A stretch of DNA of 64,000 nucleotides. Source: Plicaturopsis crispa FD-325 SS-3 (taxonomy: Eukaryota; Basidiomycota; Agaricomycetes; Amylocorticiales; Amylocorticiaceae). Positions within the stretch are counted from its first letter, which is position 1, and the number at the start of each line of letters is the position of its first letter. Made by a program: the position numbers and the translations under genes. This document shows positions 15,480 to 48,160 of this stretch, piece after piece. The notes below the pieces were generated by a model. That model did not search any database. It saw only the letters and a list, made by a program, of their open reading frames with translations, and was not told the origin of the DNA. The stretch covers positions 256,493 to 320,492 of the forward strand of contig KN832557.1 of assembly GCA_000827205.1 (NCBI GenBank). The letters are read 5' to 3'.

Positions 15480-16861
15480 GGCGGTCGACGGTAAGAATGG
15501 GCGTGATGTTCGTGCGGGCGAACGACGTGGCGGTATATGAGGCGTGGGAAATTAAATATCAATGCATCTTCGAGTGTTTTGATGTCGAGGCTCTGCTTGC
15601 ACCGCCATCGGTCTACCAAGTCAAACATTTCACTGAATACCCTTCAAGCTAGCCAGTGCGATGGACTTTATCCTACGGCGTTCTAGGAAATTCGACGGTT
15701 TCGTTATGCTCAGGGAACAACAGGGAAGAGCTGGTCCATGAACGAAGTGTGCGGCACGGTGCGGTCTTTGTGACTAGGTGATCACTCGTGGTTACACCTT
15801 TCGGAGGACAAGCGGTACCTGTACGCAACGGGCTGGACGGATCCACCGTCGCTTGCTGCGTATCGCATGGTCCCCACTGGCAAGGAAAGGCCATTTCCAG
15901 TGCCTGAACTCATCAACACGGCGTCGCCTCGATTTTTGTCCGGGTATGCGAATGAAATTGCATTGTTCAGTGCGAGTGGGCCGCAGGTGGACATCTTCAG
16001 CCTCGATACTACATCCGGTGGGTTCAGCGGCGGGCGAGCTTTGCAGAGCGTCAGCCTGGTCGACGGAGAGTCCGATGGAAAGCAGACCGAAGGCGAGATG
16101 GATTTTGGCGGACTACGACACGGTGGACATGTAGGCCGCGGTAAGCCTTCAACGATACCGCTATTGACACGTAGTGTTGCAGAGTGCGGACTTGTCTCCG
16201 GACGGCTCGAAACTCTACGTTGCCGATATGTGAGTGTTCATAACCACTGGATGTGATCTCGCTGAGCGACCTCCAGTGGACGGAACTGCATATGGATGTA
16301 TAATGTCTCATCATCCCAGACCCTCTCGCTGGCATTAAAAACGGCTGCAACCAGGGAAAACGACGGGCCACGGCATGCGTGGCCACATCCAAATGGGAGA
16401 ATTGTCTATGTTGTGCAAGAACATTCATCGGTGTGAACGGTTGGTTTTGTCACGGTATGCGCAGCAGCTGACCAGAATAGATGGTCGATGTGTTTGAGCT
16501 CGTAGGCGAGAAACTCGAATGGCGGCAAGGAGCAAGTATCATCCCTTCCGACACAACTTGCGGTGATTTCTGGGCAGATGGTGAGTTTTCTCGGTATCCA
16601 TCAAATGTGCCAGCCCGTAACGTTGCCCCAGAGGTGCGCACATCCTCATCGGCGAAGACACTGTTTGGTTCGACACGCGGACTCACGCCATCGACGCGCG
16701 GTTTTGTCGTCGCGTTCGCGTTGCTACCCTCCGGGCTCCTTGCATCCACAACACCTTCACATAGATTCGAAACACGTACCTCGGGTGGTTGGGCAAATGC
16801 GATCGCGCCATGTCCGTACGAAGGACCGAACGGCCAGGTTTGGTTGACGCTGACAGATAGC

Positions 16862-17120
16862 NNNNNNNNNNNNNNNNNNNNNNNNNNNNNNNNNNNNNNN
16901 NNNNNNNNNNNNNNNNNNNNNNNNNNNNNNNNNNNNNNNNNNNNNNNNNNNNNNNNNNNNNNNNNNNNNNNNNNNNNNNNNNNNNNNNNNNNNNNNNNNN
17001 NNNNNNNNNNNNNNNNNNNNNNNNNNNNNNNNNNNNNNNNNNNNNNNNNNNNNNNNNNNNNNNNNNNNNNNNNNNNNNNNNNNNNNNNNNNNNNNNNNNN
17101 NNNNNNNNNNNNNNNNNNNN
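16862..17120. other. Assembly gap (259 N)
   Basis: A run of undetermined bases. The 484 bases before it (16378-16861) are repeated exactly after it (17121-17604). The gap therefore most likely joins two overlapping contig ends, and the true sequence probably contains this segment once. Confidence 0.95.
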
Positions 17121-17604
17121 CGTGGCCACATCCAAATGGGAGAATTGTCTATGTTGTGCAAGAACATTCATCGGTGTGAACGGTTGGTTTTGTCACGGTA
17201 TGCGCAGCAGCTGACCAGAATAGATGGTCGATGTGTTTGAGCTCGTAGGCGAGAAACTCGAATGGCGGCAAGGAGCAAGTATCATCCCTTCCGACACAAC
17301 TTGCGGTGATTTCTGGGCAGATGGTGAGTTTTCTCGGTATCCATCAAATGTGCCAGCCCGTAACGTTGCCCCAGAGGTGCGCACATCCTCATCGGCGAAG
17401 ACACTGTTTGGTTCGACACGCGGACTCACGCCATCGACGCGCGGTTTTGTCGTCGCGTTCGCGTTGCTACCCTCCGGGCTCCTTGCATCCACAACACCTT
17501 CACATAGATTCGAAACACGTACCTCGGGTGGTTGGGCAAATGCGATCGCGCCATGTCCGTACGAAGGACCGAACGGCCAGGTTTGGTTGACGCTGACAGA
17601 TAGC
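17121..17604. repeat. Identical duplicate of 16378-16861 across the gap
   Basis: Offset of 743 bases with no mismatch that I can see, including intron sequence. The inverted homologue at 38.1-38.7 kb has this segment once. It is best read as a scaffolding artefact rather than a biological tandem duplication. Confidence 0.85.
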
Positions 17605-17706
17605 GAGATCGGTTTCGTGCAGTTGTTACAGTGGACGGAAAATCATGGCTTCAATGTCGTTGACGAGGTCGTGCTAGGCGACGATATTGGCGCCAGTGTC
17701 GCGGTT

Positions 17707-18161
17707 TCACCTGTGACTCCCACATCTTCCAGTACTCAGATTTATCTCACTCAACTGCCCACCGATTTGTTGGTTTCCAGACTCTTGTACGGTAGGGACC
17801 CAGCCGTTCAAAAGTTGGCTCACAACAATTTGACAAATCAGGTGAATTCCAGGATTTTTCGGAATAGCAGTGTACGATCTCCTCATGCTTGTCCACACAA
17901 CACAGACCCAGTTGACCACCTGCCGTCAACGACTCGCGTTAGAAAAACATGTTGAGCGCCGTCTACGTAGTGCAGCGGCATGACAGCCAGAGCCTAGAGC
18001 ACTCCGGATCGTGGCATGCCAGGCTATCCAGAACCTGCTCTATACAAAGTCCTGGAACCTGTGACGCTATCTGGTCGTCTGACTTGGGAAAGTGGACAGT
18101 TCTCAAAAACCCATCTCACTGAACTTCCCATCTCCGGATCCTTCGTCTTTGCGTCCACACA
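17707..18161. other. Spacer between the cyclase fragment and the dehydrogenase copy
   Basis: The first part, to about 17930, has no counterpart in the other arm at the matching position. The second part, from about 17930, matches the reverse complement of sequence upstream of the dehydrogenase at about 37498-37735 and should be its 5' region. Confidence 0.6.
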
Positions 18162-19537
18162 ATGGGGGGCTTTTTGCAAAGTCCTTCAACCCTGACACTG
18201 ATCTACCCATCTTGGATGGCAAGGTCATACTTGTAACCGGTGAGAAGTGAGTTATTCTCTAGTTCCTATGTCGTTTGTGAAGTGAACGTCTCGGCAAGTG
18301 CTGGCATAGGATACGCGACAGTTAAGCATCTTGTGCGGCGCGGCGCTAAGGTGTATCTGGGAGCACGTAGCGAGTCAAAGGCAACAGGTGCCATCGCAAG
18401 TCTTGAGGCGGAAGGCTTAGGCGACGCCGGTGGTCGAGTCCTATGGGCGCGGGTCGATCTAGGTGATCCGAGAGAAGCGAAGAAATGTGCTGAGGAATTT
18501 CTGGGCAGGGAACAGAAATTGGATGTTCTTAGTGAGCCCATCCCCACTCATTTGCGCATGGACTTGCCCAACGATCTGGACTGACACGCGTGGAACATAG
18601 TTAACAACGCAGCAATGTGAGGCCAACACAGCGTGATTTTGACTTGGAAACTCAGGCTGAATCTGATGCTACCAGGGGCGCTTTGACCAGGGAACCTTTC
18701 AAAAAGACAGCCGACGGTAAGCAGTGTTACCACAGCAAGAGTATAGGTCTGATATACCGCAGGTATATCGGAAATAATGGTCACCAAGTACGCACTCTTT
18801 TCAAAGCGAGCGTTACGGTGGCATCTTCATTCAATAGCCATGTCACTCTAGCCATTTCAGCCCATTTGTGTTTACGCAGACATTGCTCCCGCTACTCAAG
18901 CGTACAGCAGAGATTCCGGGTGCAGATGTCCGGATTGTCAACGTAGGTCCATTCGTTCCACACAGCATCTCCTACTTAGCTTAAACTTGTTTTCCCGGAC
19001 TTTCAGCTTGCATCGCGCGCCTCCAATGTCGTATCGAAGACCGTGCGTTTCAGGACGGTAGAGGACTACAATCTATCCTATGAGGACTCTTGGTTCTGGC
19101 CGGAGTTCCGACGTTACGGTAAGCATCCACCTTGTCCGTCCCAAACCAAACCTAGCACTGAGAAAGAGTTAGCGTTCGCTAAATTCTGCAATATTCTCTG
19201 GACCCGAGCGCTTCAAGCCCACCTCGAAGGCACCTCGATCATCGCCATCGCCGTCCACCCCGGCGGCGTCAACACATTTGCGCACCGCCTTCCCTTTCTG
19301 CGATTCTTCAAGGCTGTACTCCCGTATCTTGGTCTGGTGTCTCCTGACGAGGGCGCGTACACGTCTGTTATCGCTGCGGCGTCCCCAGATGTGCGCGCGC
19401 AGCCTGACGTGTACAAGGGCGCGTTCTTGATGCCTATTGGTAGAGTAAACGCCCCGCCAGTTGCCGCACGGAGCGACGTTTTAGCGGCTGAGCTCTGGAC
19501 GAGCACTGAATCGGTTTTGAAGGACATTGGCCTGTAG
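18162..19537 (+). pseudogene. Short-chain dehydrogenase copy A, frameshifted in exon 1
   Basis: Duplicate of the intact gene at 36132-37497. It retains the Rossmann motif (SAGIGYATVKHLVRRGAKVY after the first intron), the NNAA motif formed by splicing near 18600, and the active-site Tyr-x-x-x-Lys created across the last intron (YAFAK). However, the T run after the start codon has five bases here and six in copy B. The ATG at 18162 therefore runs out of frame before reaching the GKVILVTG block. Apart from this homopolymer difference, exon borders and frames are preserved. It is either a young pseudogene or a functional gene with a sequencing error in the run. Confidence 0.65.
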
Positions 19538-36131: not shown

Positions 36132-37497
36132 TCAGATGCCCAAATCCTTCAAGATCATATCAGTGCTTTCCCATAGTTCTGTCGCTAACTCGTTGCTGCG
36201 TGTGGCAACTGGCGGAGCGCTTACTCTACCAATAGGCATCAAGAAAGCGCCCTTGTACACGTCAGGCTGCGCGCGCACATCTGGGAACGCCGCAGCGATG
36301 ACAGACGTGTACGCGCCCTCATGAGGAGACACCAGACCAAGATACGGGAGCACAGCGTGGAAGAATCGCGGAAAGGGAAGGCGGTGCGCAAATGTGTTGA
36401 CGCCGCCGGGGTGGACGGAGATGGCGATGATCGAGGTGCCTTCGAGGTGGGCTTGAAGCGCTCGAGTCCAGAGAATATTGCAGAATTTAGTGAACGCTAA
36501 CTATTTCTCAATGCCAGGTTTCGTTTGGGACGGACAGGGTGTGTGCTCACCGTAGCGTCGAAACTCCGGCCAGAACCAGGAGTCCTCGTAGGATAGATTG
36601 TAGTCCTCCACCGTCCTGAAACGCACGGTCTTCGATACGAAATTTGAGGCACGCGATGCAAGCTGAAAGTCCGGTAAAACAAGTTTAGACCATGTGTGGA
36701 ACGGATGGACCTACGTTGACGATCCGGACATCTGCACCAGGAATTTCTGCTGTACGCTTGAGTAGCGGGAGCAATGTCTGCGTAAACACGAATGGACTAA
36801 AATGGCTAGAGGCAACATGATTTTTGAGTGAAGATGTCACCGTAACGCTCGCTTTGAAAAATGTGCGTACTTGGTGACCATTATTTCCGATATACCTGCG
36901 ATATATCAGACCTATACTCTTGTCGTCGTAACACTGCTCACCGTCGGCTGTCTTTTTGAAAGGTTCCCTGGTCAAAGCGCCCCTGGTAGCTTTAGGTTCA
37001 GCCTGAGCTTCCCAGTCAAAATAAAGCTATGTTGGCCTCACATTGCTGCGTTGTTGACTATGTTCCGCGCGTGTCAGTCCGGATCGATCGGCAAGTGCAT
37101 GCGTAAATGAAAGGGTATGGGCTCACTGAGAACGTCCAACTTCTGTTCCCTGTTCAGAAATTCCTCTGCACATTTCTTCGCTTCCCTAGGATCACCCAGA
37201 TCGACCCGCGCCCATAGGACTTTACCACCGGCGTCGCCTAAGCCTTCCGCCTCAAGACTTGCGATGGCACCTGTTGCCTTTGACTCGCTACGTGCTCCCA
37301 GATACACCTTGGCGCCGCGCCGCACAAGATGCTTGACTGTCGCGTATCCTATGCCAGCGCTTGCCGAGACGTTCACTTCACAAACGACATAGAAACTAGG
37401 AAACAACTCACTTCGCACCAGTTACGAGAATGACCTTGCCATCCAGGCTGGGTAGATCAGTGTCAGGGTTGAAGGACTTTGCAAAAAAGCCTCCCAT
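36132..37497 (-). CDS. Short-chain dehydrogenase/reductase, retinol-dehydrogenase-like (copy B)
   Basis: NAD(P)-dependent oxidoreductase with a Rossmann fold. The intact first exon gives MGGFFAKSFNPDTDLP and then GKVILVTG. An intron is followed by SAGIGYATVKHLVRRGAKVY, completing the TGxxxGxG cofactor motif. The NNAA motif, the strand ADVRIVNLASRAS with the catalytic Ser region, and the active-site Tyr-x-x-x-Lys (YAFTK) are all completed by splicing. The C-terminal region has ISVHPGGVNTFAHRLPF and ends MILKDLGI. Seven or so short introns fit, and the deduced length of about 310 residues is normal. It is transcribed in the same direction as, and directly downstream of, the hydrolase-cyclase gene, so a role in aromatic breakdown is possible. 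The substrate is not predictable. Confidence 0.85.
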
Positions 37498-39327
37498 TGT
37501 GTGGACGCAAAGACGAAGGACTCTCCGGAGATGGGAAAGTTCAGTGAGATGGGTCTTTGAGAACTGTCAACTTTCCCAAGTCAGACAACCAGATAGCGTC
37601 ACAGGTTCCAGGACTTTGTACAGAGCAGGTTCTGGATAGCCTGGCATGCCACGATCCGGAGTCCTCTGGCTATCATGCCGCTGCTCTACGTAGACGGCGC
37701 TCAACATGTTTATTTAACGCGAGTCTTTGACGGCAGGTGCTATATCCGTCAACTGGGTCTGTGTTGTGTGAACAAGCATAAGGAAATCGTAGCAGATGAG
37801 TAGCGGCCCAGAGAAGTAGTGCCCATAAGTCCGAGTTCATGCTGAAGAAGGAAGAGATTGCTTTGGGATGGCACTGGACGCGCCCAAGCTTGAAGCCGGC
37901 GGTCGGGCAGGCGCCGGCGTCGCGCCGTGCAAGATGCAACTTGTCTTCGAGCTTCAACGTTCAACGTCAACGGTCATCGATATGTTTCACTTTCAAACAA
38001 ACTTTCAAGCCCAAACAAGTCAGAATTTGACGACGTAGATGACGCTGGTGAGTACTTAGAGTATCGTTTTATCGTTCCCCGTCGTCCTTGGCTCTGAAAT
38101 CGACTAGATATAATGAAAACATAACTTCAGTCGTACCAAACCGCGACACTAGCGCCAATATCCTCGCCTAGCATGACCTCATCAACGACATTGAAGCCAT
38201 GATCTTCCGTCCACTGTAGCAACTGCACGAAACCGACCTCGCTATCTGTCAGCGTCAACCAAACCTGGCCGTTCGGTCCTTCGTACGGACATGGCGCGAT
38301 CGCATTTGCCCAGCCACCCGAGGTACGTGTTTCGAATCTATGTGAAGGTGTTGTGGATGCAAGGAGCCCGGAGGGTAGCAACGCGAACGCGACGACAAAA
38401 CCGCGCGTCGATGGCGTGAGTCCGCGTGTCGAACCAAACAGTGTCTTCGCCGATGAGGATGTGCGCACCTCTGGGGCAACGTTACGGGCTGGCACATTCG
38501 ATGGATACCGAGAAAACTCACCATCTGCCCAGAAATCACCGCACGTCGCGTCGGAAGGGATGATACTTGCTCCTTGCCGCCATTCGAGTTTGTCGCCTAC
38601 GAGCTCAAACACATCGATCATCTATTCTGGTCAGCTGCTGCGCATACCGTGACAAAACAACCGTTCACACCGATGAATGTTCTTGCACAACATAGACGAT
38701 TCTCCCATTTGGATGTGGCCACGCATGCCGTGGTCCGTCGTTTTCCCTGGTTGCAGCCGTTTTTGATGCCAGCGAGAGGGTCTGGGATGATGAGACATTA
38801 TACGTCCATATGCAGTTCCGTCCACTGGAGTTCGCTCAGCGAGATCACATCCAGTGGTTGTGAACACTCACATATCGGCAACGTAGAGTTTCGAGCCGTC
38901 CGGTGACAAGTCCGCACTCTGCAACACTACACGTCAACAGTGGTATCATCGAAGGATTATCGCGGCCTACATGTCCACCGTGTCGTAGTCCGCCAAAATC
39001 CATCTCGCCTTCGGCCTGCTTTCCATCGGACTCTCCGTCGACCAGGCTGACGCTCTGCAAAACTCGCCCGCTGCTGAACCCACCCGATGTAGTATCCAGG
39101 CTGAAGACGTCTACCTGCGGCCCACTCGCACTGAACAACGCTTCACCGTTCGCACCGACGTACCCGGACAAAAATCGAGGCGACGCCGTGTTGATGAGTT
39201 CAGTCACTGGAAACGGTCTTTCCTTGCCAGAGGGGACCATGCGATACGCAGCAAGCGACGGTGGATCTGTCCAGCCCGTTGCGTACAGATACCGCCTGTC
39301 TTTGGAGAGGTGTAGCCACGAGTGACC
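36132..39327 (-). repeat. Right arm of the large inverted duplication
   Basis: The counterpart of 15774-19537 in reverse orientation. It runs from the stop codon of the dehydrogenase to the middle of the large second exon of the hydrolase-cyclase gene. Here both genes look essentially complete, so this arm is likely the parental locus. The two arms are separated by roughly 16.6 kb holding six genes. Confidence 0.85.
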
Positions 39328-40499
39328 ACCTGTTGCCGTAGCCGTGTGGACGAGCGCAAGACGACGAGCTTGGGGATCGAAGGAGAGGGTGTAGAGAAAC
39401 GGAGATCGAAACGTTCCGAGCAAAAAGTGATGCACCTTCGCGCTATCAGCCTGCGGACGGAGGAACCCCTCGAGCTCGTCTGCGACGCGACTCGGCGATT
39501 CTATCGCACCCCAGTGGCCGACATCATTGAGTACCACACTTCTCCCCCTCCCGCCTTTGATTTCTGCTGCCCACCCCTCGACAGCGTCTTTCCCGGCCAG
39601 ATAGTCTTCTGCCCCACCTACAACGAGCACATCACACGCGACCTCACCGGCCTTAAATCCAGTCAGGTCAGCAAGGGCACGGCACGCCGCAGTATATGCT
39701 TCGGGATTTGTCGATAGCACGAGGTGCCGAATGAATGACACAGTAGTCGGCGAGTTCTGGACGGTGCACTTCGACACCGCCGATGTAGATATGGCGGATG
39801 CGAGCTCTGAGCGCGACGCAACGGGGAGGAACTTAGTGGCGCGGTCTCTCATGGCTGCAGCTGCAGCTGTGGGAAAATTGCGCCCGACCGGATGTAGAAG
39901 GACTTCGGGAAACACGACGTCAGTAAGGCTTATAGTGCCTTGACAGTTGATTCACGAACACAATTTTTCGACTCTGGACGGGTTTTGCGACGCGAACGAC
40001 GACACAACGATCTGCACGGTAAGAGATTGGTTTATATCAATGTTTATTCCTGTCCATGCTGAAGGCAAATACATGGATCGACGCCCTCCCGATATAGTCC
40101 TCAAGGGGTCGATCGACTGCGAGAATTGTACACGCCAACGAAAGGACTACTTACCGAAGACATTGAATGAGCACCCAGTGCAACCTTCTGCAATCCGAGC
40201 GCATCCAGCAATTCCTTCAAATCGCTCGCTAGATCGTCCATCGTCAAAGCATCGCGTCCACTCCACCCGCTCAAGCCGTGGCCATCGAAATCATATAGTA
40301 TAACTTGACGGCTAGCCAAAAGACGTTGACCGGAGGGGCATAGGAGCGCGGTATGCCAAAAAGCGGAGGAGGATCCGAGGCCGTGCAGGAGTACGAGCGG
40401 AAGTGCAACTGCGCTGTCGCCCGAGGGAGGCTGAGTGGCGGAGACATGTAGCGGCTGGCTGGGTCGAGAAGGCAGCGGAACGAACGAAGATGTGAACAT
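38127..40499 (-). CDS. Bifunctional alpha/beta hydrolase - 3-carboxymuconate cyclase fusion
   Basis: A six-exon model (40499-40155, 40011-38971, 38918-38872, 38824-38671, 38621-38522, 38470-38127) totals 677 codons in one frame. Residues 1 to about 290 are an alpha/beta hydrolase of the enol-lactonase type: LVLLHGLGSSSAFW oxyanion loop, YDFDGHGLSGWSGR, nucleophile Ser in AHSMSS, GGAEDYLAG and DVGHWGAIESP with the catalytic His. Residues from about 307 on are a seven-bladed 3-carboxy-cis,cis-muconate lactonizing enzyme: HHFLLGTFRSPFLYTLSFDP, WLHLSKDRRYLYATGWTDPP, SPDGSKLYVAD, HAWPHPNGRIVYVVQEHSS. The second exon crosses the domain junction with no intron, so the fusion is not a splicing guess. 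In the model one TGA (39952-39954) lies in the hydrolase strand after RVEKL; it may be a missed short intron, a sequence error or a real lesion. Confidence 0.82.
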
Positions 40500-41013
40500 C
40501 GTACGTGCTTTACAAGTTTAAGCGTAACGAGTGAACCCAGTGAAGTAACGATTATCTATCGCCAATTCTCCAAGGGAAACATTGATATCTTCTTCTTCTC
40601 CGCGGCCATGCTGCACGCTACTCGCTCTTTGCCTTGCAGCTGCAATGGGCCTGCGACGGCCGGTCACCGGTCACTGTGTTTACTCCAGCTTACTCCAGAC
40701 TGCTTAACATCCCACCTCCCTTGCCGCGCTTTCTTACGGGCCTCCACTCCCGTTTGGTGTCATTTGTCACAAGATCTGCGCCCATGCTCCTGCACGTAGT
40801 GCAGGCATACCTAAGTAGCCGTGTCTTTACGCCGGAAAAAGATTCCATAGACGGTATGATTTGTGGTGGTTCTGAGATCCGATAGAGCGCGTACGCTCTG
40901 CTCTGGTCATGCAGCAGCAGGACACATGTAATATATATCTCATTCACCCCGGCTCAGTCTCCATCCTTTCCCTGCAGCATCACTCTCCCGGCACAGCTCA
41001 CCAACACCTCCCC
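40500..41013. promoter_or_regulatory. Divergent promoter of the cyclase-hydrolase fusion and the ring-cleavage dioxygenase
   Basis: About 0.5 kb between two oppositely directed starts of what look like pathway partners, suited to common regulation. No gene is seen. A TATA-like element lies on the dioxygenase side. Confidence 0.55.
40932..40938 (+). promoter_or_regulatory. TATA-like element of the intradiol dioxygenase gene
   Basis: TATATAT about 80 bases before the ATG at 41014, followed by a pyrimidine-rich leader (CCATCCTTTCCCT near 40964). Confidence 0.5.
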
Positions 41014-42182
41014 ATGTCTGATCCAGACTACAGTATGTGCTACTATCCTCCGTCCTCGTGAATGCCTCCATCTGACATTTCTCAGCCGACAAAGTAGCGT
41101 CCACGGTGGGACCAAAGGCTGACGCCCGCTCGAAGGTCATATTCTCGTCGCTCATCAGGCATCTACACGCCTTCGCTCGGGAGGTCGACCTCACGACCGA
41201 TGAATGGCTTGCCGCCTGCGACTCACTTATCGAAGCCGGGCAGATTTCTGGTCCTCAGCGGAATGAGATGATTCTCATTTCAGATGTGCTTGGTCTCGAA
41301 GCGCTGCTCGACTCCATGGCTCAAGAGCGTCTGCAGAAGGCCGCTAGTACAGGAACGAAGTCTGGCAGCGCAAATGCTACACGTTCGTCTTTGTCTGAAT
41401 TACTCGTACGGGGCCTCACACTGACTCTCACCCAGCGTCCGCCATATTAGGCCCATTTTACCGTGAGGGTCTACCCTCCTTCAAAAACGGAGAATCTATC
41501 GTCAAAACCCCCGCTCCAAACGATGTCCGTGCACATGTGTTTGGTACATTGCGCGACCCTGACGGAGCACCCATTAGTGGTGCTACTATCGAGTGCGCAC
41601 ATCTCTATCGCATGACCCTTCCCAGTTCTGAAGAACAAGCAGCATCTGGCACACGGGGTCGCACGGACTATACGACAGTCAGGTGTGGGATCCTTCTGAC
41701 CCAGCATCACACAAATTTAACTGGCGCGGGCGTTTCACGACCGACGAACATGGCAAATACGATTGCCACTGTTTGCGCCCCACTGCATATCCTATACCGT
41801 TCGACCATACGTAAGCCTACCCAGCCCGACTCTTCCGTTTTCTCTCGCTGAGTCCCGAGACATGCGTCGTTGCAGTGCCGGCAAGATCCTCACTCTCCTT
41901 GACCGTACCCCCGTGCGCCCTGCGCACATCCATTTCTATGTTCAGGCGCAAGGGTTCCACCCTCTCATTACACAAATATACGACTCGCAATGCAAATACG
42001 TCAAAAACGACGCGGTGTTTGCGGTCAAGGATGCGCTCATTGTCGAATTCAAGGACACCGGGGATCACGAGACCGAATTGGAGGTTAGTTCCACGTCGCC
42101 AATGTATGCAAAGCGAGCTCACTGGATCCTACATCTACAGTATAACATCGTGCTTGCAAAGGCGGCCAAGGAAAGCCACTGA
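41014..42182 (+). CDS. Intradiol ring-cleavage dioxygenase (catechol/hydroxyquinol 1,2-dioxygenase type)
   Basis: Non-haem Fe(III) enzyme that opens catechol-type rings between the two hydroxyls. The N-terminal helical domain (FSSLIRHLHAFAREVDLT, GQISGPQRNEMILISDVLGL) is typical of catechol and hydroxyquinol dioxygenases rather than protocatechuate 3,4-dioxygenase. The catalytic domain begins SAILGPFYREGLP. The iron ligands are visible: Tyr in IWHTGSHGLYDSQ (reached only if the third intron ends at GAACAAGCAG, near 41643), Tyr in RPTAYPIPFD, and both His in RPAHIHFYVQAQGF. The protein ends YNIVLAKAAKESH after a last intron. Five introns are used. It is divergent from the hydrolase-cyclase fusion. 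Substrate preference between catechol and hydroxyquinol cannot be read from sequence alone. Confidence 0.88.
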
Positions 42183-42817: not shown

Positions 42818-44301
42818 ATGAATGCCGTTTACTACCATGCGGTATGTGGTTCTGGGCTCATGGCCTAGCATGCTGCGGTGTTCACCCAATCTGCATTTAT
42901 GTGTAGCCCCGCCAACTGGAAGTGCGCTCGGTACCCATCCCCGAAATAGGCGACGAGGATGTCCTGATCAAAGGTACGCGAACAAAATCTTATGCGTCAC
43001 ACTTGGCCCGATTGACTGAATTTGTCTTCTGTTAGTTTCTTGCTGCGGTACGTCTGCCCGTGGTGCTTTCATGACTCGGACGTCGCATTGACATCGGCGA
43101 CCGTGCCAGGCATTTGCGGCACTGACAACCACGTCCACGAAGGCGAATTTATCGCCAAGTTCCCTGTAGGTGCTAGAGTACGGCTATGTGATGCGAAGCA
43201 TTTAGCAACCTTTGTCCCTTCGTAGCTTGTCCCCGGCCATGAAGTCGTTGGCACAGTCGCCAAGGTAGGCAGCAACGTTCAGGCCTTTCACGAGGGCGAT
43301 AGATGCGTCGCCGATCCCGGAGTCACGGTGATTAATTCGCTAACCTATCGACCCTCCCACGAGTCGCTTACTACCAGTACCTGCAGTGTTCAAATTGCTT
43401 CTACTGCCGTCGCGGCCAGACCCTTCTCTGCGAGAACTTCAATGGTCTTGGTGTCACCATCGCGGGTGGCTTTGCCGAATACGTCGTCTTCGACTACAAG
43501 AAGGTGTACAAAATCAGGAACCTCACTGACCTCGAAGCGACACTCGTCGAGCCCGCGGCATGCGCAATTCACGGGATTGACAGGCTGAACCCTCCCGTCG
43601 GCATTGAAGCACTCGTCATCGGGGCGGGACCCACCGGACTTATCCTTTCGCAACTGCTGAAGTTGAACGGCGCGTCGAAGGTTGTCATCGCTGCGAATAA
43701 AGGGATCAAGACGGAAATCGCCAAGAAATTGGATGCTGGGGACATCTACGTCGAGCTGGATCGCACTGACCCCGACGCACAGTGGGCGAAGATCAAGGAG
43801 GATCATCCTTACGGCTTTGACGTCGTCGTGAGTCCCCTCTTCTCGGCTGCACGATATGACTTACGCGTCTCTGCATAGATTGAAGCCACAGGATCGGAAA
43901 AAATTGCTAACGAATCAATCAACTATGTCCGTCGCGGTGGTACCCTTATGATATACGGCGTTTACTCTGACGCCTCTCGCGTTCACTGGCCGCCGTCGAA
44001 GATTTTCGGCGACGAAATCCGGGCATGTCCAATCTCCAACGTTATCTCTGTGCTTCTGAAGCTAAACCGCGGATTAGATTATTGGATCATTCGCGCAAAC
44101 ACATTGTTTCCCCCGCGCGGTCGCGTACCTCGACAGCGGCAAGATCAAGGTCACTGGCATGGTGAGCTTTAGCTACGGTGTGGTACTACGCATCGCACTC
44201 ATTAAGGATAGGTGACGGATGTGTTCAAAATAAATGATTATCAAAAGGCTTTGGAAAGGCTGAATAGTCGAAATGCTTTGAAAATAGCGCTGACGCCGTA
44301 G
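42818..44301 (+). CDS. Zinc-dependent medium-chain alcohol dehydrogenase, arabinitol-dehydrogenase-like
   Basis: Cytosolic NAD(P)-dependent polyol dehydrogenase closest in motif content to the basidiomycete D-arabinitol dehydrogenase (ARD1) group. The first exon is MNAVYYHA; splicing continues to [20 protein letters not shown]. The catalytic zinc site appears as [17 protein letters not shown] and [11 protein letters not shown]. The structural zinc cysteines are all present in [15 protein letters not shown]. The cofactor fold shows [22 protein letters not shown]. The C-terminal part includes [21 protein letters not shown] and ends ALKIALTP. Eight introns are used; one near 44012-44078 starts with GC rather than GT and joins GDEIR to [14 protein letters not shown]. 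It lies downstream of the ring-cleavage gene, but no metabolic link is evident. Confidence 0.87.

Positions 44302-46621: not shown

Positions 46622-48160
<1,539 letters not shown>

What the first reader, a model, noticed from the sequence alone, without database searches (positions are those of the whole stretch)
38127..40499. Alpha/beta hydrolase fused to 3-carboxymuconate cyclase in one exon
Seen: a single open exon (40011-38971) runs from the hydrolase core through its catalytic His region (DVGHWGAIESP) straight into the cyclase start (HHFLLGTFRSPF), and the whole six-exon model keeps frame. Known: in fungi 3-carboxymuconate is cyclised to 3-carboxymuconolactone, which a separate hydrolase turns into beta-ketoadipate; bacterial PcaL fuses a different pair (decarboxylase and enol-lactone hydrolase). 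Inferred: this protein would channel the lactone between two consecutive steps. I am not aware of a characterised enzyme with this order. It could identify the missing lactone hydrolase of the basidiomycete pathway.
Basis: partly seen in the sequence, partly recalled or inferred. Interest (0 to 1): 0.78.

Follow-up and report, generated by a model that had tools for sequence, protein, structure and literature searches.

The report
Fused muconate cyclase–lactone hydrolase gene
A wood-decay mushroom carries one gene that joins two enzymes for breaking down ring-shaped plant compounds; the join is real and shared with some yeasts, but it most likely serves the catechol route, and this kind of fused enzyme has already been noted in print.

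Summary
The fusion is real; one structural detail and the pathway were misread. The window is Plicaturopsis crispa FD-325 SS-3. The "open exon" 40011-38971 holds an in-frame TGA (39954-39952); an intron 39959-39903 removes it, giving seven exons and 657 residues. The joint lies in uninterrupted exon 3, and the expected catalytic residues are present. Five named yeasts carry the same order at 47-51% identity; the fusion rows form one clade (95/87). The public model is a partial cyclase (residues 290-655). The cyclase is 24.5% identical to Neurospora 3-carboxymuconate cyclase but about 45% to proteins named muconate cycloisomerase 1, and a catechol-type intradiol dioxygenase starts 514 bp away, divergently. 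Best reading: cis,cis-muconate cycloisomerase plus 3-oxoadipate enol-lactonase of the catechol branch. FAMeDB (PMC13094099) already mentions such a joined enzyme in Basidiomycota, and the protocatechuate-branch lactone hydrolase is known in Aspergillus niger (ChdA, PMC10406623). No activity was tested; the intervening muconolactone isomerase is unidentified.

The parts
40155..40499 (-). Fusion gene exon 1: start codon at 40499, alpha/beta hydrolase core with HGLG and nucleophile Ser112
   Evidence: splicing; Pfam Abhydrolase_1 residues 34-269; Ser kept in the 7 of 18 rows that reach it
39960..40011 (-). Exon 2 (hydrolase)
   Evidence: intron 1 before it is at the place and phase inferred for environmental relatives P0011-P0014
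39903..39959 (-).
   Evidence: residues on both sides match relatives
38971..39902 (-). Exon 3: rest of hydrolase (Asp232, His262), joint at about 39456-39432, first part of the cyclase with His443
   Evidence: uninterrupted frame
38872..38918 (-). Exon 4 (cyclase)
38671..38824 (-). Exon 5 (cyclase; Arg491, Glu507)
38522..38621 (-). Exon 6 (cyclase)
38127..38470 (-). Exon 7 (cyclase; Arg559), stop codon at 38129-38127
40500..41013 (.). 514-bp stretch between the two divergent start codons, possible shared promoter (inference)
   Evidence: coordinates
41014..42182 (+). Intradiol (catechol-type) dioxygenase gene, six exons, 296 aa, equals PLICRDRAFT_173115
   Evidence: 100% over 100%; PF04444 and PF00775

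Best explanation
[quoted passage not shown] not tested). The C-terminal seven-bladed propeller lactonises cis,cis-muconate, made from catechol by the dioxygenase encoded next door, to muconolactone. A separate isomerase, not identified here, turns that into 3-oxoadipate enol-lactone. The N-terminal alpha/beta hydrolase (Ser112, Asp232, His262) opens the enol-lactone to 3-oxoadipate. The fusion keeps the first and last lactone steps on one chain and in fixed ratio. Shown: gene structure by sequence, both domain families, expected catalytic residues, conservation of the fusion, the divergent dioxygenase neighbour. Inferred: substrates, co-regulation, any benefit of tethering.
Against: I saw no assay of any enzyme of this architecture; 'muconate cycloisomerase 1' labels are annotation. 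The hydrolase misses the curated cut-offs for PcaD, PcaDC and PcaCD. The dioxygenase scores higher against solved hydroxyquinol-type than bacterial catechol dioxygenases (184 against 105 bits), so its substrate is not proven. It also does not branch with the sampled dioxygenases of Vanrija, Cutaneotrichosporon, Trichosporon or N. adeliensis but with another Naganishia protein and two environmental ones, so fusion and dioxygenase do not clearly share one history. No isomerase was recognised by Pfam at 28.5-38.1 and 40.5-52.5 kb and no MIase in the genome. FAMeDB itself calls the Basidiomycota variants of both branches preliminary.
Confidence: 0.7

Rival explanations
1. One reading: protocatechuate branch. 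The propeller makes 3-carboxymuconolactone and the fused hydrolase converts it directly to beta-ketoadipate, decarboxylating it too.
Against: 24.5% identity to CMLE where the A. niger orthologue keeps 67% (PMC10406623); the neighbour is a catechol-type dioxygenase, with only weak scores to protocatechuate dioxygenases; the known decarboxylating hydrolase ChdA has a Bro-N-like N-terminal half that this protein lacks and that was not found in the genome.
Confidence: 0.13
2. A broad-specificity enzyme serving both branches, or substituted muconates (methyl- or chloro-).
For: With the fusion as query the genome gave only one other cyclase, secreted-looking, on C6; PMC7842363 (passage) suggests broad-specificity enzymes act on muconate derivatives in Aspergillus nidulans.
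Against: No direct evidence. PF10282 also hits C17 and C14, whose roles were not studied; the PF00775 search found one other intradiol dioxygenase, on C9.
Confidence: 0.12
3. Gene-model artefact: two genes, read through or wrongly joined, make separate proteins.
For: Public model is cyclase only (residues 290-655, partial); P. crispa makes polycistronic transcripts (PMC4503453, passages); a second partial cyclase copy without hydrolase lies at 15776-17707.
Against: No stop or intron at the joint, no Met between residues 150 and 354; same joint in independent fungal proteins; the second copy is cut inside the cyclase, not at the joint.
Confidence: 0.03

Closest known systems
Basidiomycota joined 3-carboxymuconate cyclase paralog / 3-oxoadipate-enol lactonase (Martins et al. 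2019, cited in FAMeDB, PMC13094099)
   Same: Same two activities joined in one polypeptide, same phylum, same putative catechol-branch role; very probably the same thing
   Different: The sentence read gives no species, domain order or sequence; the 2019 review was not read; P. crispa is not named in the FAMeDB main text
[quoted passage not shown]
   Same: Seven-bladed propeller, four recalled catalytic residues
   Different: 24.5% identity; no hydrolase
Fungal proteins named muconate cycloisomerase 1
   Same: About 45% identity over the cyclase half
   Different: Standalone in the rows listed, apart from one with other domains; names are annotation
PcaD 3-oxoadipate enol-lactonase (2XUA, TIGR02427) and PcaDC (NF051488)
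   Same: Fold, triad, best family scores for the hydrolase half
   Different: Below curated cut-offs; PcaDC carries a decarboxylase instead of a propeller
Aspergillus niger ChdA (3-carboxymuconolactone hydrolase/decarboxylase)
   Same: An alpha/beta hydrolase of the fungal beta-ketoadipate pathway in a two-part protein

Membership tests
Fungal propeller cycloisomerase (Lactonase PF10282; CMLE/muconate cycloisomerase 1 type) | Seven-bladed propeller profile over its cut-off | tested here: met
Fungal propeller cycloisomerase (Lactonase PF10282; CMLE/muconate cycloisomerase 1 type) | Catalytic His, Arg, Glu, Arg (positions recalled from the CMLE literature, from no call) | tested here: met
   His443, Arg491, Glu507, Arg559 in the window, same in 9 of 9 relatives aligned
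3-carboxymuconate cyclase (CMLE/CmcA) orthologue | Orthologue-level similarity to characterised CMLE | tested here: not met
   24.5% identity; A. niger CmcA has 67% (PMC10406623)
Muconate cycloisomerase, EC 5.5.1.1 | Turnover of cis,cis-muconate | not testable with these tools
   needs an assay
3-oxoadipate enol-lactonase (PcaD) | Alpha/beta hydrolase fold and Ser-Asp-His triad | tested here: met
   Ser112, Asp232, His262 by motif and alignment
3-oxoadipate enol-lactonase (PcaD) | Curated TIGR02427 cut-off | tested here: not met
   83.4 against 255.85 bits
ChdA 3-carboxymuconolactone hydrolase/decarboxylase | Bro-N-like N-terminal half followed by hydrolase | tested here: not met
   No Bro-N match in this protein at E 0.01; none found in the genome
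PcaL/PcaCD (decarboxylase-enol-lactonase fusion) | CMD domain fused to hydrolase | tested here: not met
   No CMD match in this protein at E 0.01; one CMD match elsewhere in the genome, C5
Basidiomycota joined cycloisomerase/enol-lactonase of Martins et al. | Cyclase paralog joined with enol-lactonase-like domain | tested here: inconclusive
   Architecture fits the one sentence read; the reference sequences could not be compared

The most novel reading that the evidence does not exclude
The fused enzyme runs the catechol branch from cis,cis-muconate to 3-oxoadipate without a separate muconolactone isomerase: the lactone is isomerised by one of its own two active sites, or muconolactone is opened directly and the product rearranges, so the fusion replaces three enzymes by one.
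Probability: 0.08. Interest if true: 0.62.

Novelty: new member of a known kind. Interest (0 to 1): 0.33.

Why it matters
It corrects a truncated public gene model, adds a mushroom to a fused enzyme otherwise seen here, among named rows, only in Tremellomycetes yeasts, and gives a ready target (fusion plus divergent dioxygenase) for assay in a wood-decay fungus. It also makes a concrete question testable: where the isomerase step of the basidiomycete catechol branch is done.

Tried and rejected
Region-limited homologue search with the hydrolase half returned only Vanrija albida of 7994 scored candidates; it missed fusions that one search had found, so it says nothing on absence. Search for a CMLE orthologue in the genome with 1JOF found only the fusion, its partial copy and the C6 paralog. 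PF10282 also hits C17 and C14; these were not studied. Search for the bacterial-type isomerase family MIase found none; the fungal isomerase (AN4061 type) has no sequence here, so its absence is not shown. EthD genes on C2 were looked at as isomerase candidates; forward-strand Pfam neighbours at 60-69 kb are Nramp and DUF726, no link to the pathway; the other strand was not scanned. The C20 hydrolase is only 27-29% identical. Recent transfer from Tremellomycetes: the window branches outside all sampled Tremellomycetes fusions, so not supported; loss elsewhere is not shown either. A search for papers on PDB 8r2v gave nothing relevant. Ten paper searches showed, in their listings and in the passages I opened of eight papers, no assayed enzyme of this architecture; subscription journals are mostly not held.

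Full report
Identity of the window. A homologue search with the spliced protein returned PLICRDRAFT_62351 of Plicaturopsis crispa FD-325 SS-3 at 100% over 56% of the query. This is an agaricomycete of the order Amylocorticiales. The assembly, 33.2 Mb in 49 contigs, is held, and the window is contig C4:256493-320492. The public protein is marked partial and is identical to residues 290-655 of the fusion, so the hydrolase half is missing from it.

Gene model. Exon 1 (40499-40155) ends in phase 0 with AHSMSS, followed by GTAAGT. Removing an intron 39959-39903 joins VEKL to FLLHPVGRNFP. Relatives read VEKLILLHPVRN or close to it at this place. The donor GTTCGT is unusual, but the neighbouring dioxygenase has an intron with the same donor (41383-41435), and there my splicing gives exactly the public protein PLICRDRAFT_173115, 296 of 296 residues. 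The result is seven exons and 657 residues; all six introns are GT-AG.

The joint. Residues 282-290 (39456-39432) lie inside exon 3, which is open over its 932 bases. No Met occurs between residues 150 and 354, so a cyclase-only protein from an internal start is unlikely. Pfam finds Abhydrolase_1 at 34-269 (70.4 bits, cut-off 25.8) and Lactonase at 293-574 (101.7, cut-off 21.7).

Conservation. Of 271 proteins found, 120 were listed. Six besides our own are fusions of 634-645 residues (47-51% identity, 95-100% coverage): Cutaneotrichosporon sp. HIS471, Vanrija humicola, V. albida, C. oleaginosum, Saitozyma podzolica and one environmental protein. Eleven more environmental proteins (P0008-P0018) hold the later part of the hydrolase plus the cyclase. 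A BLAST of the hydrolase half matched 17 of the 120 listed proteins, P0002-P0018. Four of the truncated proteins (P0011-P0014) have a glutamine just before the (T/I)(V/I)TSLF motif, as expected if a CAG acceptor was read through; the window has CAG at the same place and phase (ORF ...VQIVVSSF). So intron 1 is probably shared; this rests on open frames, not on gene models. The hydrolase Asp is kept in 18 of 18 rows; the His in 17 of 18 (Saitozyma, P0006, lacks that stretch, perhaps a gene-model error); the Ser in the 7 of 18 rows that reach it. P0014 has about 31 extra residues at the joint. Among the listed rows that carry a species name, P. crispa is the only agaricomycete I recognised; many rows carry no name.

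Origin. In a 45-row tree of cyclase parts (44 of the 120 listed proteins plus the window) the 18 fusion rows form one side of a branch (95/87; 96% of 200 bootstrap trees). The window is sister to the 17 others (100/99), and the standalone Naganishia adeliensis protein, a long branch, is next. A quick 121-row tree agrees (SH-aLRT 89), but its CMLE outgroup has a very long branch. One fusion event is the simplest reading; transfer into P. crispa from within the sampled Tremellomycetes is not supported.

Which cyclase. The cyclase half is 24.5% identical to N. crassa CMLE (1JOF) over 396 columns. Among the listed standalone hits it is 39-51% identical, mostly 43-48%; many of the named ascomycete ones are called muconate cycloisomerase 1. 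A. niger CmcA, a proven enzyme, is 67% identical to CMLE (PMC10406623, passages). The four residues that I recall as active-site residues of CMLE are all present. So fold and probable chemistry are kept, while orthology to CMLE is not supported. With 1JOF as query, the genome gave only the fusion, its partial copy and a C6 paralog. That paralog begins with a hydrophobic stretch like a signal peptide (my reading), so it is probably secreted. The Pfam family also hits C17 and C14; neither was matched by the fusion query and I did not study them.

Neighbourhood. The other informative gene is an intradiol dioxygenase at 41014-42182 on the plus strand, its start codon 514 bp from that of the fusion. 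In a 25-row tree it lies apart from three hydroxyquinol-type anchors at 100/100; the 21 other rows were chosen from its own hit list, which favours that outcome, and none is known to me as assayed. Within that group it joins a Naganishia vaughanmartiniae protein and two environmental ones, not the sampled dioxygenases of Vanrija, Cutaneotrichosporon, Trichosporon and N. adeliensis, so the pair need not have travelled together. The only other PF00775 gene found, on C9, is 56-64% identical over its two blocks to PDB 8r2v, while the window's protein is 36% identical to it. 8r2v is labelled only as an intradiol dioxygenase; its hydroxyquinol role is my inference. Further Pfam matches in the scanned stretches are NOL10 (31.2-33.1 kb), a short-chain dehydrogenase fragment (37.1-37.4 kb), a zinc alcohol dehydrogenase (43.1-44.0 kb), a KH-domain gene (45.0-45.6 kb), an FMN oxidoreductase (47.1-48.1 kb, minus) and a kinase (51.5-52.1 kb, minus), besides a few weak matches below cut-off. 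No isomerase was recognised there, and no MIase in the genome. CoA-transferase matches lie on C7. In Naganishia adeliensis a standalone cyclase and an intradiol dioxygenase have locus tags ten apart and the same longest-contig length, which suggests linkage there too.

Known work. FAMeDB (PMC13094099; [quoted passage not shown] 2019 (not read). In A. nidulans the catechol branch uses separate genes AN3895, AN4061 and AN4531 (PMC12388069, passages). ChdA closes the protocatechuate branch in A. niger (PMC10406623, passages).

Verdict. A genuine, conserved fusion, most likely muconate cycloisomerase plus enol-lactonase of the catechol branch (0.7). The proposed protocatechuate-branch role is less likely (0.13). 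Direct channelling is not implied, because an isomerase normally acts between the two steps; whether one is needed here is the open and testable point.

Noticed in passing
window 15776-19169 and 36500-39331: Inverted segmental duplication: 36500-37791 matches 19169-17873 at 90%, and 38138-39331 matches 17707-15776 at 95-97% in two pieces; the copy holds only the later part of the cyclase and no hydrolase. The query began at 36500, so the true outer end was not traced.
   Followed up: partly
window 16862-17120: Run of N; 16500-16861 is found again at 17243 onward, so the ends of the gap overlap, probably an assembly artefact inside the duplicated copy.
   Followed up: partly
own genome C6:1430037-1431369 (L033/L034): Paralogous cyclase with a hydrophobic N-terminus like a signal peptide, possibly like the secreted fungal proteins also named 3-carboxymuconate cyclase.
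   Followed up: no
own genome C17:327084-327717 and C14:515306-515770: Two further Lactonase-family (PF10282) matches, not matched by the fusion query; role not studied.
   Followed up: no
own genome C2:63722-65034 (L042): Two adjacent EthD-domain stretches, of a fold class in which a fungal muconolactone isomerase might be sought (recalled); no pathway neighbours seen on the forward strand.
   Followed up: partly
window 47085-48136 minus and 43106-43986 plus: An FMN oxidoreductase (PF00724) and a zinc alcohol dehydrogenase near the cluster; relation to the pathway unknown.
   Followed up: no
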